A model generated the notes under the pieces. It saw only the letters and a list, made by a program, of their open reading frames with translations, was not told the origin of the DNA and ran no database searches. Shown in pieces: positions 3,365 through 23,741 of a stretch of DNA of 36,619 nucleotides (within the stretch, counting starts at the first letter, position 1; each line of letters starts with the position of its first letter). Source of the DNA: Caldifarciminota bacterium (GTDB taxonomy: Bacteria; Hydrothermota; Tepidihabitantia; B3-TA06); assembly GCA_023128825.1 (NCBI GenBank), contig JAGMDF010000077.1, positions 1 through 36,619 of the forward strand. Reading direction: 5' to 3'. Position numbers and translations under genes: made by a program.

Positions 3365-4342
3365 ATGGTCAGTCTACTTTTTTCCCTCTTCACCGCTCTT
3401 ACCCCCCAGGCCGAGGCGCTGCTTGAGAGGGGTATAGAGGCCTCCCACGTGGAGGATTACGTTAAGGCTCGCATAGCCTATGCAAAGGCCAAGAGGCTCT
3501 GCCCTGAGGACCCCGCTCCATACTTCCTTGACGGCGCTTTAACCTTCATCTACATGGTGGATTTCGTCACCGACTCACTGGAAGATCAGTTCGATTGGGA
3601 CATGAACAAGGCCGAGGAACTTGCAAAGGCCGGACTTGCGAAGAACGGCGAGAACGCCCGCGACCTTTTCTTCATCGGATCGGTTAAGATCTTCCGCATG
3701 GTTCGTTACGGTTGGAAGCGCCAGTACCTCAAGGCTCTCTCTGCGGGAAGCTCGGCACTCGATCCTCTTCTCAAAGCGAGCGAACTCGACCCCAATCTCC
3801 ACGACGCATATCTGGCCAGGGGGGCTTTTGATTACTTCTCCGGCCGGATTAACCGCTACATCCCGGGCGTGCCTGCCGAGGCCACGGTCGAACAGGGTAT
3901 AAGCGAGATCAGGCTTGTCTACGAGAAGGGCACTTACTTCCAGGCCTCTGCCGGCCAGGCGCTTTCATGGGTGCTGACCGAGGAGGGTCGATCAAAGGAA
4001 GCGCTTGCAGTGAGCCAGGAGCTTGTGGATGCCTACCCAGAGTCCCGCACCTTCCGCTGGGGACTGGGCGAGTTGTACATCGACCTTGAAATGTGGGAAG
4101 AGGCAAAGGAGCTCTACAAAAAGCTTCTTGCCGACGTTCGCCGCGACCAGCCCTCCTGCTACACCAATATCTATCAGATAAAGCTTCGCCTGGCTGAGGT
4201 TTATGCAAGTATGGGGAAGGAAGAGACCGCCGTCCGTTACTGTCTGGAGGTTATAGACAACAAGTATCGGATCAGAAGGGATTTGGGATACTCCGATATT
4301 GTCAGGGATGCTGAAAGACTCTTGCGCAAACTCGATGAATAA
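3365..4342 (+). CDS. Secreted tetratricopeptide-repeat (TPR) protein
   Basis: A 325-residue protein with a short N-terminal hydrophobic segment (VSLLFSLFTALTPQA, likely signal peptide) followed by TPR-like helices: ALLERGIEASHVEDYVKARIAYAKAKRLCPEDP, then LLKASELDPNLHDAYLARGAFDYFSGR, and C-terminal units FRWGLGELYIDLEMWEEAKELYKKLL and RLAEVYASMGKEETAVRYCLEVID. The A/G-Y/F-A/P pattern at positions 8, 20 and 27 of the 34-residue unit is visible. TPR arrays mediate protein contacts, here probably in the periplasm. The start could be GTG 3362 or ATG 3365. Its last 8 bases overlap the start of the glycosyltransferase gene, so the two are translationally coupled. Confidence 0.8.
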   Translation: MVSLLFSLFTALTPQAEALLERGIEASHVEDYVKARIAYAKAKRLCPEDPAPYFLDGALTFIYMVDFVTDSLEDQFDWDMNKAEELAKAGLAKNGENARDLFFIGSVKIFRMVRYGWKRQYLKALSAGSSALDPLLKASELDPNLHDAYLARGAFDYFSGRINRYIPGVPAEATVEQGISEIRLVYEKGTYFQASAGQALSWVLTEEGRSKEALAVSQELVDAYPESRTFRWGLGELYIDLEMWEEAKELYKKLLADVRRDQPSCYTNIYQIKLRLAEVYASMGKEETAVRYCLEVIDNKYRIRRDLGYSDIVRDAERLLRKLDE

Positions 4343-5657
4343 GAGTATCCTTATCATAACCTACTACTTTCCTCCGTTGGGCGGGGTTGGAGTGCAGCGG
4401 GTTTCAAAGTTATGCAGGTATCTTCCTCGCTTCGGCTGGCGTCCTGTGGTAGTTGCGCCCCAGCCCTCGGCGTTCTATGCTGCCGACGAGGAGATGCTTG
4501 CCGAGGTTAAGCACGTATCGCTGTATCGCGTTGCGGGCCTTGACAGCTTCCGCATGCGCCAAAAGCTCATCGGTCCTTTTAAACCAAGAATTGACAGCCC
4601 GTTGCGCTGGGTTGCCCGGCGTTTTTCATGGCCCGATACACAGACCGCATACATCCCTGCGGCATTCAGGCTTGCCTATAGGCTGGTAAACGAAGCCCAC
4701 GCGGTCCTCGTTACCGCTCCGCCTTACAGCAACCTTCTTCTGGGGCGGCTGATCAAGAGGAGAAGCAATCTTCCACTCATTGTAGAGATGCGCGATCCCT
4801 GGGTCGGGCATCCGGAACACGATAAGCCGGGCTGGAAGCGTGCCTTAAACAGGCGGGTTGAGCGCGACGTTCTGGAATACGCCGACGCCGTCGTCGCGGT
4901 TACACGCTCGCATACCGGGAATCTGCGTAAGCGTTATCCCTGGCTTGCCCCACGTATCCACTACATCCCCAACGGATTCGACGCCGCCGACTTCCGTAAC
5001 ACCCGTAACACCCGCAACACCCGCAACACCCGTAACACCAGTAACACACGTAACACACCTATCCGTAAGACTTCTGGCACCAGTAAACGAAGGCCCTTAA
5101 CCATCTGCTATACCGGTATACTTGGACTGGATCATATCAATCGCGGGACTACCCTGTATGCGGCGATCAGGCGGTTGAGGGACGAGGATGGGATTACACC
5201 TGCTCGGTTGCGTGTGGAGATAATGGGGGAGCTAAGCGCGGTTGAAGAGGAGCGAATCCGTCGTAGCGGCGTCTCTACCTTTATTGAAAGACTGGGGCAT
5301 CTGTCCCACCGCAAGGCTATGCAGCGCCTTCAAAAGGCAGACCTCGCATGGCTGCCCTATCATGCGGAGTATTCACGCCTTATAGTCCCTGCCAAGACTT
5401 ACGAGTATATAGGTTCGGGCACGCCTGTGCTGGCCGTGGTCAACCCGCATCATGAAACCGCAGAGCTTGTTCGGGAGACCGGCACCGGTCTTGTGGTGTC
5501 CGAGGGCGATGTTGACGGGGTGACACAAGCCATGCGTATGCTTCTTGAAGGAGCTTTTCCTTACTCTCCCAAGCCCAAGGCCATAGCAAAGTTCGATCGG
5601 CGATACCAGGCCAGGCAGCTTGCCGAAATCCTGGATGACATTACCCGGTATGGCTAA
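4335..5657 (+). CDS. Glycosyltransferase, GT4-like, with an in-frame 9-bp repeat insert
   Basis: The 440-residue protein has the two-Rossmann (GT-B) layout. The N-terminal domain opens with SILIITYYFPPLGGVGVQRVSKLCRYL, typical of GT4-family enzymes that use nucleotide-sugar donors. The C-terminal domain has LTICYTGILG near residue 255 and a donor-site region SGTPVLAVVNPHHETAELVRETGTGLVV. It probably adds sugars to a surface polysaccharide or lipid. Between the domains, residues 221-241 are seven RNT-type triplets encoded by the same 9-bp CGTAACACC repeat found in intergenic DNA here; this lies in the usual linker after IPNGFD, so activity may survive. ATG 4335 overlaps the previous stop (ATGAATAA) and its own last 8 bases overlap the next gene. 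Confidence 0.85.
   Translation: MNKSILIITYYFPPLGGVGVQRVSKLCRYLPRFGWRPVVVAPQPSAFYAADEEMLAEVKHVSLYRVAGLDSFRMRQKLIGPFKPRIDSPLRWVARRFSWPDTQTAYIPAAFRLAYRLVNEAHAVLVTAPPYSNLLLGRLIKRRSNLPLIVEMRDPWVGHPEHDKPGWKRALNRRVERDVLEYADAVVAVTRSHTGNLRKRYPWLAPRIHYIPNGFDAADFRNTRNTRNTRNTRNTSNTRNTPIRKTSGTSKRRPLTICYTGILGLDHINRGTTLYAAIRRLRDEDGITPARLRVEIMGELSAVEEERIRRSGVSTFIERLGHLSHRKAMQRLQKADLAWLPYHAEYSRLIVPAKTYEYIGSGTPVLAVVNPHHETAELVRETGTGLVVSEGDVDGVTQAMRMLLEGAFPYSPKPKAIAKFDRRYQARQLAEILDDITRYG
4995..5057 (+). repeat. Seven in-frame CGTAACACC units inside the glycosyltransferase gene
   Basis: Consecutive 9-mers CGTAACACC (x2), CGCAACACC (x2), CGTAACACC, AGTAACACA and CGTAACACA encode (R/S)NT seven times. The unit is a three-codon multiple, so expansion keeps frame. 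The same unit occurs in intergenic arrays at 8521-8683, 8847-8868 and 21401-21462. Confidence 0.9.
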
Positions 5658-8520: not shown

Positions 8521-8683
8521 CCCGTAACACCACCCGTAACACCCGTACCCATAACACCCGTACCCGTACCCCTGCGGGGCATTCTCATTATTACTTGGAG
8601 CTTACGCTCCAGAACATCTAAGGATATAACACCCGCACCCGTAACACCCGTAACACCACCCGTAAAACCACCCGTAAAACACC
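8521..8683. repeat. Degenerate CCCGTAACA arrays with interspersed hairpins
   Basis: Two runs of CCCGTAACA/CCCGTACC-type 8-10-mers (8521-8571 and 8625-8683) flank small hairpins such as GGAGC-TTAC-GCTCC and CCCTGCGGGG. No coding frame is convincing across 8520-8865. Confidence 0.75.
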
Positions 8684-8828: not shown

Positions 8829-8846
8829 ATACGAAGTAGCCTGGGT

Positions 8847-8868
8847 GTGTTACGGGTGTTACGGGTTA
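8847..8868 (-). repeat. CCCGTAACA repeats abutting the stop of the second CNNM gene
   Basis: On the minus strand the stop codon TAA is followed directly by CCCGTAACA CCCGTAACA. The coding sequence thus ends exactly where the repeat begins. Confidence 0.75.
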
Positions 8869-9792
8869 TTCCTCGTTGCGGATCTCGCCTATGAACTCCT
8901 CCAAGAGGTCCTCGAGGGTAACAAGCCCAATAGGTTTTTCTTCCCTGTCCAAAACGATCGCCATATGCGCCCTGTTCGACTGCATGGTGCGCAGAAGCTC
9001 GGTGATGCGGGCGCCCGGCGTGGTGAAGAAGGGCCTGCTCAATCTGGGTCTTTCCCGCAGGAGGTCCTTGGCGTGCAGGATGCCCTTGATGTGGTCGGTG
9101 CGGCGATCCAAAACAGGGTAACGTGTGAATCCCTCCTGCTCAATCACCTTGAATATCGTCCTGCGTTTGGTCCCGGACTTCAGCGTTACCACGCGATCCC
9201 ATGGGGTCATCACGTCGCCAAGAGGGGTGTCGAAGGCGCTGAACAGGTTGGCCACGCGAGGTGAGGTCTTCTCCTCGATACTTCCGATCTTTTCGCCGAG
9301 TCTCAGTGCGGTGAGCATATCCAGCCGGGTGATGGAGAGGCGTTCGCCTCTTTTCTCCTTTCTCTTAGGACGATGAAAGAGGCTTCTGAAGGGTTTTGAG
9401 AGCACTATCGCCACGGAATAGAAAGGAGAGGTTGCTATCACCGTTCTTTCCGCGTTCAACCGTGCCAGATTCTTGGGTAGATACTCGCCGAGCAGCAATC
9501 CTGCCGCCACACCTACGATGATAGCTACGCTCGTTCCCAAGGTTTCGTTGAATTGATCCACGAAGAAGGCGGTGAGGAACAATCCGGACAGTACAATCGC
9601 GATGTTGGTTCCTATAAGGGTGACCACCAGGAGGAGTTCGGGATTGTTTAAAAGCTCTATGGCCTTCTCCTGCCTGGGGGTTTTTTTAGAAAGATGAGCC
9701 ACCCGTACCGGGTTCGCCACCACATAGGCCGTTTCCGAGCCTTCAAAGAACCCCTGGATGAATATGAAGAGTATGCCTAAAAGAAGCGTCAC
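8866..9792 (-). CDS. CNNM/CorC-type membrane protein lacking the C-terminal CorC_HlyC domain
   Basis: This is the second of two adjacent CNNM-like (DUF21 plus CBS pair) proteins, a family linked to Mg2+ or other divalent-cation transport. The N-terminal DUF21 part has hydrophobic spans including LLLGILFIFIQGFFEGSETAYV and LLLVVTLIGTNIAIVLSGLFLTAFF, and the SETA motif. The CBS pair follows (GDVMTPWDRVVTLKSG...YPVLDRRTDHIKGILHAKDLL; MAIVLDREEKPIGLVTLEDLLEEFIGEI). At 308 residues it stops right after the second CBS domain, unlike its neighbour, and its stop codon touches a CCCGTAACA repeat. It starts with GTG overlapping the previous stop by 4 bases (GTGA), so it is coupled to the upstream paralogue; the pair may form a heterodimer. 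Confidence 0.85.
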   Translation of the reverse strand: MTLLLGILFIFIQGFFEGSETAYVVANPVRVAHLSKKTPRQEKAIELLNNPELLLVVTLIGTNIAIVLSGLFLTAFFVDQFNETLGTSVAIIVGVAAGLLLGEYLPKNLARLNAERTVIATSPFYSVAIVLSKPFRSLFHRPKRKEKRGERLSITRLDMLTALRLGEKIGSIEEKTSPRVANLFSAFDTPLGDVMTPWDRVVTLKSGTKRRTIFKVIEQEGFTRYPVLDRRTDHIKGILHAKDLLRERPRLSRPFFTTPGARITELLRTMQSNRAHMAIVLDREEKPIGLVTLEDLLEEFIGEIRNEE

Positions 9793-11018
9793 CTGGTCCT
9801 CTTTTGTTCCAGCAGAACCTTTTCTATACGCAGGCGTCTTACGCTTCGAACAGTAAGATCGATTCCCTTGTAGCTCATCTTCTCCCCGCGCTTCGGTATG
9901 TGCCCCAGCTCGTGGGTTATGAGCTCTGAGAGCCTGTCGAACTCCTCCTCGGCCTCCCGGAACGCGTCGTCAAAAAACTCGTTGAGTTTGGCCAGATCTA
10001 TGTCGCCGTCTACAACATATCTCCCGCGAGCAAGACGCTTGTAGGGAACCCCGGTGTCGTACTCGTCCACTATCTCGCCGAAGATTGCCTCGAGTATATC
10101 CTCAAGCGTCACCAGTCCTGCGATGCCGCCGAACTCGTCCACCACTATGGCTATATGCTGATCGGAGCGCCGCAGCTCTTCCAGAAGTTCTGAAAGGACT
10201 TTGGTTTCAGGCACGAAGTAAGGCTCGCGCATGAGTTTCTTCAGGGACGTTCTAGGCGGTGCGGTAAGCAGATCCTTTGTGTAAAGCAGGCCGACTATCT
10301 TGTCGGTGGTGTCCTCGTAGATCGGGTAACGGGATTTATGTGTCCGGCGGGCGTAGGCAAGCGCTTTGTATCGAGTTGTGTTTACAGGAAGGGCACTCAT
10401 CTCCACACGAGGGGTCATCACCTCCCTTACCATGCGTTCACCCAGATCCACGAGGTTTTCCATGATCTGTTCCTCCTGCGGGCGAAGTATGCCGTAACGC
10501 ACCGCCATATCAATCATGGTTTTGACCTCCTCGTCAGTGGGAAAGGGACGTTCCCTGGGGCGGCCCCGGAAGATCAATCCGGCCAGTGAAGAGAGGACCC
10601 AGGTCAGGGGGAAGAACAGCCACCGGAAGAATATCAATACAGGCGCATAGAGCCGGGCAATTGTTATCGGTAGCCTTACCGCAACAATCTTGGGTGTTAT
10701 ATCGCCAGCGAGAAGAAGCACCACGATCATCAGAGCCGCGCCTATGGAGAGGATCTTGGTTTCATTCCACCCCCAGCGCTTTGATGTCATTATGAGCAGG
10801 GTTGTCCAGAGCGAGGTGGCGGCGAAGTTGACGATGAGATTGCCCGAAAGGATCGTTCCAAGAAGCCGGTCGCGTGATGAGAGCAGCCTGCGCACGAGCC
10901 CTGCCTGCTCAAGCCGCGCACTTCGCAGCGGCGAGATGGAAAAGTATGCGGTCTCAGCGCTTGAGAAGAAGGCGCTTGCCACAAGAAGGATAAGGATGGC
11001 CGTAAGAATCGGGATCAT
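9789..11018 (-). CDS. CNNM/CorC-type (hemolysin-like) membrane protein with DUF21, CBS pair and CorC_HlyC domain
   Basis: A 409-residue full-length member. Residues 1-190 form the DUF21 membrane domain (MIPILTAILILLVASAFFSSAETAYFSIS; later ITPKIVAVRLPITIARLYAPVLIFF). The linker EQIMENLVDLGERMVREVMTPRVEM leads into two CBS domains (YPIYEDTTDKIVGLLYTKDLL; HIAIVVDEFGGIAGLVTLEDILEAIFGEIVDEYD). A CorC_HlyC domain follows (YVVDGDIDLAKLNEFF...FDRLSELITHELGHIPKRGEKMSYKGI). The family is tied to divalent-cation efflux or transport. The ATG at 11018 is preferred; a TTG 3 bases upstream is possible. The gene starts 3 bases after the ybeY stop in the phoH-pgpH-ybeY operon, a common bacterial arrangement. 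Confidence 0.92.
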   Translation of the reverse strand: MIPILTAILILLVASAFFSSAETAYFSISPLRSARLEQAGLVRRLLSSRDRLLGTILSGNLIVNFAATSLWTTLLIMTSKRWGWNETKILSIGAALMIVVLLLAGDITPKIVAVRLPITIARLYAPVLIFFRWLFFPLTWVLSSLAGLIFRGRPRERPFPTDEEVKTMIDMAVRYGILRPQEEQIMENLVDLGERMVREVMTPRVEMSALPVNTTRYKALAYARRTHKSRYPIYEDTTDKIVGLLYTKDLLTAPPRTSLKKLMREPYFVPETKVLSELLEELRRSDQHIAIVVDEFGGIAGLVTLEDILEAIFGEIVDEYDTGVPYKRLARGRYVVDGDIDLAKLNEFFDDAFREAEEEFDRLSELITHELGHIPKRGEKMSYKGIDLTVRSVRRLRIEKVLLEQKRTR

Positions 11019-21229: not shown

Positions 21230-21296
21230 ACTGCAGAGATATTGAGATTAGAAGATTTGAAGATACGAAGATTAAAAGATTGAAGATTAGATTGTG
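21230..21296 (+). repeat. AT-rich GAAGATT-type short repeats
   Basis: A run of degenerate 7-10-mers (GAGATTAGAAGATTTGAAGA, TACGAAGATTAAAAGATTGA, AGATTAGATTG). No gene is seen in 21079-21455. Confidence 0.5.
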
Positions 21297-21400: not shown

Positions 21401-21462
21401 GGGGTGTTACGGGTGTTACGGGGGTGTTACGGGTGTTACGGGGGTGTTACGGGTGTTACGGG
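21401..21462 (-). repeat. Three exact 20-bp units of the CCCGTAACA repeat at a gene end
   Basis: GGGGTGTTACGGGTGTTACG occurs three times in a row (21401-21420, 21421-21440, 21441-21460). The stop codon of the 21456-23201 gene (TAA, 21458-21456 on the minus strand) lies within the last unit, so the repeat supplies the stop. Confidence 0.9.
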
Positions 21463-23201
21463 AGGCGGCGTACCTGCAGGCGGTAGAAGTTCTCTCCCTC
21501 CAATCGGCAGATGTAACCTAAATGCTTTCCGTCGGGCGAGAAAAAAACATAATTGAGCCAGCCCTCGTTCGGAGCCATAAGGGTAATCGCCTCGACGCTG
21601 CCGTCGCAGGAGCGGAGCCTGGGCGAAGGCCTGTCCCGAACCTCATCCCCAGGTGCCCGGTTCACGTCTTCATACACCAGCACCCAATCCTTGCCGGGCA
21701 CGAACCGGAATGGGGCGGCGGATTCATACTGTAGTATATGGACATAGGATTTCACCGATTTCAGCAGCGACGGATCTGAAAGCGCCTCTGTCGGGATAAG
21801 AACGTGTTCGTAAGGGGGCAGGCGTTTGCATAGCCACTTGCGCAAGCGGGAGAACTGCTTGTAATAGTCCAGCACGAGCCAGCGTTTGTCGGGCGAGAGC
21901 TCCCAGTTCATCTCCCAGCCCGGTTTTTTGAACTTGCGCAGCTCGGATATTTCACGGGGAGGATTGATAAGATCGGATATTGCCGGGACCTGAACGAATC
22001 TGCTGGGTAAATTACATGCAGGGAATCCCCAGCTGTCAAAGGGACACAGAAACAATGCTTTACCTGAAGGTGCGAGGAATGACTCACTTGAAAAACGACA
22101 GTCATCTTCTAAATAATCACCAGTGGGTACTAGAAGTTCGGTATATGCTGAGTCGCAGGATTCCAGATCGCATACCCTAACCGAGCACCGTTTCACCTCG
22201 TAGTGTCGCAAGGGAATAAACTTATGTTTGGCTAGCTCGCGAAGAAAGCCGATTCGTGAAAATCGGGTAAGTCTATTGAGCAGTAAAAGGCCTCGAATTC
22301 GTTTATTCAATATCTCGGAATATTCTTCAGAAGAAACAATCCGGTCCTGTTCGACAATATAGCAATGGGAAGCGGTAAATTCAGCTATTGAATCAATCTC
22401 CTCGTAAAGCAGCCGGCCCTCGGCAGTGATCCTTATTCGCAGGCTAAGGTTAAGATCCTCAAGCTCAGGAGCCGGTATCCTGGCGACAACACGCATATCC
22501 CGCAGGTCAACCGCCAGGATTTCGTTCGAAGGGAGGTTAATTCTACCAAAAGAAACGATCCCTTTTTCAAGAATATTGTAACCGTAACCGGTGAAGAGAA
22601 GGATATACGGTAGCTCGACCTGTAGAATATATCCTTGCACTGCGGCAACTGTTCGCGGCTCAGAAGAGTGCACGTCCACTACGTAGAATAGCTCCATGCG
22701 GTCAGCCAGCATATTGTTGAACTGGAATTCGGGCAAAGTGCCTGAAACGTTAATCATCTCCACGTTTCCTACGTGCACCATCCGGCTGGTATCGCCTAAA
22801 GGCAAGGGGAATAGTATCCACCCCGGATGAAGCTGGTTTGAAAGACGATAACTGGCATTTATGTTTAAATCGAGAGAGTAAACCTCGTAGGTATTGCCGA
22901 GCGCTCGATACGGAGGCTCTCCGCCTGGAATGTTCAGAACGAGCGTATCGCAGGAGCCAGGATTTGCCAGAGGGTAGCGTCGCAGCATGACCCCCCAGTT
23001 GATCGAATCAACCCCGACAAAGGTAGCGACGTAGAGCAGGCTGTCAGTGAACCCAAGGATGTTTGACCACTCCCCGTATCTGTCGGGGATGGATAAAACA
23101 AGCGGCAGTTCGGCCTGCTCAGGTGGTTCCGATTTGGGACATCCCACAACTAAGGCCAGGCCTAGATAAAAAATGGCTACAATCCAGCCCCTTATCTTCA
23201 T
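21456..23201 (-). CDS. Lipoprotein of unknown function, possible propeller-like
   Basis: A 581-residue protein with a lipoprotein signal peptide (MKIRGWIVAIFYLGLALVVGC, lipobox VVGC, Cys21), so it should be lipid-anchored. Short strand-turn motifs such as IPDRYGEWSNILGFTDSLLYVATF, SPDKRWLVLDYY and FFSPDGKHLGYICRLEG recall WD40-like/TolB-type (PD40) propeller blades, where SPDGK-x-h-x-y recurs. Blade count cannot be set by eye. ATG 23201 lies 5 bases after a -10 box without a ribosome-binding site. The last codons (CTC CCG TAA) run into the CCCGTAACA repeat, so the original C-terminus may have been changed by repeat growth. No specific function is recognised. Confidence 0.7.
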   Translation of the reverse strand: MKIRGWIVAIFYLGLALVVGCPKSEPPEQAELPLVLSIPDRYGEWSNILGFTDSLLYVATFVGVDSINWGVMLRRYPLANPGSCDTLVLNIPGGEPPYRALGNTYEVYSLDLNINASYRLSNQLHPGWILFPLPLGDTSRMVHVGNVEMINVSGTLPEFQFNNMLADRMELFYVVDVHSSEPRTVAAVQGYILQVELPYILLFTGYGYNILEKGIVSFGRINLPSNEILAVDLRDMRVVARIPAPELEDLNLSLRIRITAEGRLLYEEIDSIAEFTASHCYIVEQDRIVSSEEYSEILNKRIRGLLLLNRLTRFSRIGFLRELAKHKFIPLRHYEVKRCSVRVCDLESCDSAYTELLVPTGDYLEDDCRFSSESFLAPSGKALFLCPFDSWGFPACNLPSRFVQVPAISDLINPPREISELRKFKKPGWEMNWELSPDKRWLVLDYYKQFSRLRKWLCKRLPPYEHVLIPTEALSDPSLLKSVKSYVHILQYESAAPFRFVPGKDWVLVYEDVNRAPGDEVRDRPSPRLRSCDGSVEAITLMAPNEGWLNYVFFSPDGKHLGYICRLEGENFYRLQVRRLP

Positions 23202-23664: not shown

Positions 23665-23741
23665 CCAACTTTTGTCCAGCTTTTGACCACCTTTTGACCA
23701 ACTTTTGACCAGCTTTTGACCAGCATTTGACCACCTTTTTT
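23665..23741 (+). repeat. Seven 11-bp iteron-like repeats upstream of nfnA
   Basis: Seven back-to-back 11-mers fit CCANCTTTTGA (variants at position 4 and minor changes in units 1, 6 and 7). The array ends 48 bases before the -35 box of the nfnA promoter. A spacing of 11 bases places each unit on nearly the same face of the DNA helix, as in arrays bound cooperatively by a regulator or initiator. Confidence 0.85.

What the first reader, a model, noticed from the sequence alone, without database searches (positions are those of the whole stretch)
4995..5057. Intergenic 9-bp repeat has invaded a glycosyltransferase gene in frame
Seven CGTAACACC-type units encode (R/S)NT x7 at the linker between the two Rossmann domains. 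The same unit makes up intergenic arrays elsewhere in the window. As 9 is a multiple of 3, length change adds or removes RNT triplets without frameshift, so this may be a length-variable hinge, and a source of N-x-T-rich linker.
Basis: seen in the sequence. Interest (0 to 1): 0.6.

Follow-up and report, generated by a model that had tools for sequence, protein, structure and literature searches.

The report
Dispersed nine-base repeats inside bacterial genes
A bacterial family in the candidate phylum WOR-3/Stahlbacteria has the same nine-base tandem repeat scattered over its genomes, and where it falls inside conserved genes it almost always adds whole amino acids without breaking the protein, so these genomes show how junk-like DNA can colonise working genes.

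Summary
In detail: window 4995-5057 holds seven CGTAACACC-type units that encode (R/S)NT x7. They lie between the two Rossmann domains of a GT4-type glycosyltransferase, in a predicted low-confidence linker.

The array is one of about a hundred related sites in this Candidatus Stahlbacteria (WOR-3) genome. The unit occurs in all 8 sampled genomes of its family and in none of 53 other genomes of the class. Orthologues carry 7, 2, 1 or 0 units at this position, or a longer in-frame insert. That insert is a 57-bp two-hairpin element that splits a unit at its TA. The same 8 genomes, and no others, carry this element.

Many arrays lie inside conserved genes (tgt, glyS, radA, hisJ-like, hdrA-like). 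They are read in five of six frames; the sixth (TAA) occurs only at gene ends. Length differences between orthologous sites are multiples of 3 in 31/32 genic pairs, against 8/23 intergenic.

Closest precedents are Rickettsia palindromic elements and TAACTGA/STRR heptamer arrays. The 9-bp array plus unit-splitting element was not found in the papers searched. How arrays spread is unknown; no mobilising enzyme was identified. The "N-x-T-rich" remark is wrong, and invasion specifically from intergenic DNA is not shown.

The parts
4335..5657 (+). GT4-type glycosyltransferase gene (GT-B fold) that carries the array
   Evidence: Pfam PF13579/PF13439 N-domain and PF13692 C-domain; Foldseek best hit MshA 3c4q, E 5e-16. 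Start ATG 4335 is my choice from the sequence.
4995..5057 (+). Seven-unit 9-bp array, read as (R/S)NT x7, in the inter-domain linker (residues 219-239 of the translation from 4341)
   Evidence: residues 212-249 have pLDDT < 50
8522..8558 (+). Intergenic array, left of a composite element (unit spacing not strictly 9)
8567..8628 (+). Palindromic core element (two hairpins), TA at both ends, 62-bp variant counting both TA, splitting a CG|TA...TA|ACACC unit
   Evidence: covariance-model hit E 1.6e-15
8639..8681 (+). Intergenic array, right of the composite element
8846..8864 (-). Two-unit array just after the stop of the CNNM/CBS gene 8866-9792(-); absent in the G002 orthologous site
21403..21461 (-). 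Six-unit array at the 3' end of the 581-aa gene 21456-23201(-); the first unit's TAA (21456-21458) is the gene's stop codon

Best explanation
The array in the glycosyltransferase is one copy of a dispersed repeat family specific to one bacterial family of Candidatus Stahlbacteria/WOR-3. The family has two parts: tandem arrays of CCGTAACAC(C) and a 57-bp palindromic, MITE-like element that sits in a unit between CG|TA and TA|ACACC. Both behave as dispersed, probably selfish, DNA. SHOWN: about a hundred array matches per genome; the same site differs between species in unit number, or in array versus element; hairpins conserved by compensatory change; in genes almost only frame-preserving forms are seen; gene-end arrays supply TAA stops. 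INFERRED: copies arise by an unidentified dispersal process; unit number changes by slippage or recombination between units; the element enters a unit at TA and can be lost by recombination between the flanking units; purifying selection removes copies that break the frame, and copies in loops, linkers and termini are tolerated. In the glycosyltransferase the insert is therefore most likely a near-neutral, length-variable disordered linker, not an adaptive hinge.
For: Distribution: pattern and covariance model hit exactly the same 8 genomes of the family, 0 of 53 others. Site by site: orthologous GT site with 7/2/1/0 units or the composite; array versus composite exchange at several other sites; a near-isogenic pair (flanks 95-98%) differs by exactly 114 bp = 2 x 57. 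Junctions: left CG 35, the other 11 being AA/CA/GA, i.e. mostly the ends of a preceding element; right ACACC/ACACA 40. Hairpins: 36 cells with changes on both sides against 10.0 +/- 2.6 shuffled; 93.5% paired against <=58% when slid. Coding filter: length differences multiple of 3 in 31/32 genic against 8/23 intergenic site pairs, Fisher p 5e-7; homology-defined genic sites 37/39 same frame and open, unit spacing 100/100 multiples of 3 against 101/165 outside ORFs. Frames used: RNT 14, PVT 12, GVT 18, CYG 6, VLR 3, stop frame 0; 24 gene ends take the stop TAA from the repeat or element. Host genes include RadA, Tgt, GlyS, HisJ-like, HdrA-like.
Against: No mobilising enzyme found: IS630-type DDE_3 absent; Y1 transposases present in 7 of 8 genomes, but the five examined with enough context had no element beside them. 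No clean pair of a filled site and a unit-free empty site with both flanks >=84% was found, so arrival of an array was not caught; L089 (RadA) and L054/L125 are the nearest cases, with weaker flanks or a small replacement. Two genomes have many arrays and few elements (G004 66 vs 3, G005 46 vs 2), so arrays are not simply element ends. The frame tests pool three related genomes and are not fully independent.
Confidence: 0.72

Rival explanations
1. The palindromic element is a REP/BIME moved by a RAYT (Y1, IS200/IS605-like) transposase, and the arrays are its scars.
For: Short hairpins, mosaic and tandem arrangement, many copies; Y1_Tnp genes in 7 of 8 family genomes.
Against: The five Y1 genes checked have no element beside them, while RAYTs are described as always flanked by REPs (PMC2817692); G004 has no Y1 hit but 66 array matches. 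TA at the ends is not a known Y1 feature (own knowledge).
Confidence: 0.1
2. The arrays are a functional DNA or RNA signal (translation regulator as proposed for TAACTGA arrays, uptake sequence, or protein-binding iterons).
For: One strongly over-represented word; single units also in excess, 27 against 8.1 expected; precedent proposal for TAACTGA (PMC4679880).
Against: 196 of 223 CGTAACAC copies lie in arrays or elements, unlike uptake sequences. Intergenic arrays show no preference for promoters: divergent/convergent/tandem 14/17/50 against background 222/205/711, and they lie nearer the upstream stop (median 18 bp) than the next start (98.5 bp). Many copies are inside genes on either strand.
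Confidence: 0.1
3. The RNT stretch is an adaptive, selected peptide linker that tunes the glycosyltransferase.
For: Linker position; unit variants in this array are mostly synonymous (4 of 5 by reading the codons).
Against: G005-G008 orthologues lack it; the same DNA is read as RNT, PVT, GVT, VLR or CYG in other genes, so no common peptide is selected.
Confidence: 0.05
4. Independent local slippage at each gene produced the same minisatellite by convergence.
For: Identical 27-mers occur alone in a few unrelated genomes (Pseudomonas, Rhodococcus, Bacteroidetes), apparently independent.
Against: About a hundred sites with one unit in one bacterial family and none in 53 others of the class.
Confidence: 0.03

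Closest known systems
Rickettsia palindromic elements (RPE)
   Same: Short palindromic dispersed elements found between and inside conserved protein genes as in-frame inserts (reviewed in PMC2229807, PMC10969869).
   Different: RPEs are 105-150 bp and encode a conserved peptide; here the core is 57 bp, often nested in 9-bp tandem arrays, and the arrays alone are the commoner insert, read in five frames.
TAACTGA heptamer direct repeats (Beggiatoaceae, Cyanobacteria) and cyanobacterial STRR sequences
   Same: One short tandem unit dispersed over many loci of a genome, variable in copy number (PMC4679880).
   Different: Unit is 9 bp and unrelated in sequence; TAACTGA forward arrays stop all three frames and are mostly intergenic near start codons; here many are inside genes and no start-codon bias is seen.
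TA-inserting bacterial MITEs (Correia/NEMIS, RUP, ERIC)
   Same: Small non-autonomous hairpin DNA with TA at both ends; Correia, RUP and ERIC also leave target duplications (table in PMC2229807).
   Different: No clear terminal inverted repeats, no IS630-type source found, and one orientation within a specific 9-bp unit.
REP/BIME with RAYT transposases
   Same: Mosaic and tandem arrangement of short palindromes.
   Different: Five checked Y1 genes are not flanked by the element; many copies are genic.
PARCEL repeats
   Same: Palindromic DNA repeats that encode tandem protein repeats (PMC2996958).
   Different: PARCELs encode a 25-residue amphipathic motif in ORFs of unknown function; here 9-bp units, also in housekeeping genes.

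Membership tests
Bacterial MITE (TA-inserting) | Target-site duplication, TA | tested here: inconclusive
   TA at both ends in nearly all copies and an exact 2x57-bp difference between near-identical sites; but flanks are the two halves of one unit, so TA could belong to the element.
Bacterial MITE (TA-inserting) | Terminal inverted repeats | tested here: not met
   RNAalifold predicts two internal hairpins and no terminal pairing; only a short CCTTG/CAAGG match in some copies.
Bacterial MITE (TA-inserting) | Cognate IS630-type transposase | tested here: not met
   PF13358 in 0 of 9 genomes; other transposase families not tested; drafts incomplete.
Rickettsia palindromic elements | In-frame presence in conserved genes | tested here: met
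   37/39 homology-defined genic sites (arrays and elements together) open and in frame.
Rickettsia palindromic elements | Sequence relation to RPE families | not tested
   No RPE sequences were compared.
REP/BIME with RAYT | Element flanks a RAYT gene | tested here: not met
   None beside the five Y1 genes examined with context.
STRR / TAACTGA-type short tandem repeats | Short unit in direct tandem at many dispersed loci | tested here: met
   64 sites in about 0.56 Mb of the own genome.
STRR / TAACTGA-type short tandem repeats | Heptamer unit of the known sequences, mainly intergenic | tested here: not met
   Unit is CGTAACACC, 9 bp; 44 of 64 sites in ORF calls.
DNA uptake sequence | Mostly single dispersed copies | tested here: not met
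   196 of 223 copies in arrays or elements.
Known RNA family | Match to an Rfam model | tested here: not met
   Only a sub-threshold match elsewhere in the stretch.

The most novel reading that the evidence does not exclude
The 9-bp unit is itself the mobile or templated entity: an unidentified enzyme of this bacterial family adds units at new places, genes included, and the hairpin element is a second parasite that uses the unit as its specific, oriented landing site.
Probability: 0.2. Interest if true: 0.8.

Novelty: new variant of a known kind. Interest (0 to 1): 0.6.

Why it matters
It is a further bacterial lineage, far from Rickettsia, in which dispersed DNA sits in frame in many conserved genes, with a very short unit whose reading in five frames can be compared directly. 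It gives a natural experiment on which protein positions tolerate 6-40 extra residues, and it poses a clear open question: what spreads a 9-bp tandem repeat to about a hundred sites in a genome.

Tried and rejected
Reverse transcriptase as a templating enzyme: PF00078 in only 1 of 9 genomes. IS630 source: none. RAYT adjacency: none at five genes. Rfam: no family. Uptake-sequence reading: copies are in arrays. Start-codon regulatory reading: no positional bias. Search for unit-free empty sites with both flanks >=84%: none. Viral contigs for the glycosyltransferase: none. Exact 27-mer hits outside the phylum (Pseudomonas, Rhodococcus, Bacteroidetes) have no hairpin element nearby and look independent. 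A text search for the unit gave 100 unrelated papers with no sign of this repeat in the 20 listed; no paper on WOR-3/Stahlbacteria repeats in the held library.

Full report
OBSERVATION. The finding is in the sequence as described. TRF gives 4994-5056, period 9, seven copies; codons read RNT x5, SNT, RNT. The gene is a GT4-type glycosyltransferase: Pfam N-domain at residues 19-212 and C-domain at 255-403, Foldseek best match MshA 3c4q. An AlphaFold2 model from 8 orthologues (mean pLDDT 75.7) gives residues 212-249 below 50, between two better-predicted domains. The array therefore lies in a predicted flexible linker.

GENOME-WIDE FAMILY. Two units in tandem (<=1 mismatch) occur 92 times in the own 2.05-Mb genome and never in the reversed control. 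All 8 sampled genomes of the same family have them (8-92 matches), 0 of 53 others of the class. In 0.56 Mb read from the own genome the unit's 8-mer is the most over-represented word; 196 of 223 copies are in arrays or elements, and the 27 single copies still exceed the 8.1 expected.

A SECOND ELEMENT. Arrays often flank a core TACCCCTNCGGGGCATTCTCATAATTACTCGGAGCTTACGCTCCG...CAAGGAMATA of 57 bp plus a repeated TA (60 bp in a variant), mostly between CG and ACACC, i.e. within a split unit, in one orientation; tandem copies have a 57-bp period. A covariance model finds it in the same 8 genomes and no other of 61. Its two hairpins are supported by compensatory changes: 36 double-change cells against 10.0 shuffled, 93.5% paired against at most 58% when slid. 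Copy number does not follow array number: G003 has 69 elements and 29 array matches, G004 3 and 66, G005 2 and 46. Flanks in G003-G007 show the same split unit in most copies.

THE GLYCOSYLTRANSFERASE SITE. After NGFDxxDF, the own gene has seven units, G001 two, G003 one, G005-G008 none. G002 has a composite element read in frame as TRNTRTRTPLGHSHNYSELTLRSQGHNTLSTP. Comparison of G001 with G002 places the element within the last unit of the array.

OTHER GENES. 44 of 64 own-genome sites fall in ORF calls, 26 with blastp homology on both sides in G001 or G002. Named hosts: RadA, Tgt, GlyS beta (array at the start of the DALR match), an HdrA-like and a NuoF-like protein, a HisJ-like phosphatase, a ComEC-type protein, and a Peripla_BP_2 protein where the array follows a cysteine near the N-terminus. 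IspG also carries a two-unit RNTRNT stretch, but I did not compare it with orthologues. The 57-bp core is shared by three species inside the HdrA-like gene.

CODING FILTER. Differences in length between orthologous sites are multiples of 3 in 31 of 32 genic pairs and 8 of 23 intergenic pairs (Fisher p 5e-7). Because 'genic' was first defined by intact ORFs, I repeated it with both flanks matching one protein by blastx regardless of the query ORF: 39 sites, 38 keep the frame and 37 are open through; unit spacings are multiples of 3 in 100 of 100, against 101 of 165 at sites outside ORFs. One of the two exceptions is the window's own 8522-8681 site, matched to a short, doubtful ORF. Frames used at genic sites: RNT 14, PVT 12, GVT 18, CYG 6, VLR 3, none in the TAA frame. 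At gene ends, 24 sites take their stop from the repeat or the element, all TAA, including the 581-aa gene at window 21456. Counts pool three related genomes, so orthologous sites recur and p-values are optimistic.

MECHANISM. Shown: dispersal, unit-number and array/element differences between species, hairpin conservation, coding filter. A pair with 95-98% flanks differs by exactly two cores, 114 bp, within a unit at TA, which fits insertion at TA, or loss by recombination between units. Not shown: any transposition event, the enzyme, or arrival of an array at a unit-free site; a search for such pairs with both flanks >=84% found none. In one gene (L054/L125/L137) an array present in G000 and G002 is missing in G001 without frame loss; G001 and G002 look like the closer pair by flank identity, so loss in G001 is likely. 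No DDE_3 transposase, reverse transcriptase only in G003, Y1 genes without adjacent elements in the five checked.

COMPARISON. Works like: Rickettsia palindromic elements for in-frame residence in conserved genes (PMC2229807, PMC10969869), TAACTGA/STRR arrays for a short dispersed tandem unit (PMC4679880), TA-inserting MITEs for the junctions (PMC2229807). Member of: none established; RPE relation untested, MITE terminal repeats and transposase not met, RAYT adjacency not met. No description of this repeat was found in the held library, which lacks most subscription papers.

LIMITS. All genomes are drafts and short-read assembly can shorten tandem arrays; several separately assembled genomes agree, which argues against an artefact. 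Gene calls were made by a simple longest-ORF rule, with homology checks for the statements above. Within-species length variation was not testable.

Noticed in passing
window 21456-21458 (-): The first TAA of an array is the stop codon of the 581-aa gene 21456-23201, which has no Pfam or NCBIfam match.
   Followed up: yes
L070:1817-2062: Tandem run of palindromic cores with 57-bp period joined at TA.
   Followed up: partly
L102 near 10850-10953, L136 near 2048-2113, L121 near 8974: A longer form of the element carries an extra hairpin (CAGAGCCTGCCCCTTGAAGTATTTTATACTTCATAGGG) within its first stem-loop.
   Followed up: no
L060:15936-16065 (own genome C68): A DNA polymerase III delta gene has a stretch of many degenerate units, much longer than in G001.
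   Followed up: no
L038, L044, L047 (Bacteroidetes-type bins): Three-unit copies of the same 9-mer followed by inverted TGTTAC repeats in similar contexts; probably independent coding repeats.
   Followed up: partly
window 23665-23739: An unrelated 11-bp tandem repeat (CCAGCTTTTGA, 6.8 copies).
   Followed up: no
window 21245-21291: An unrelated 8-bp tandem repeat (AGATTAGA, about 6 copies).
   Followed up: no
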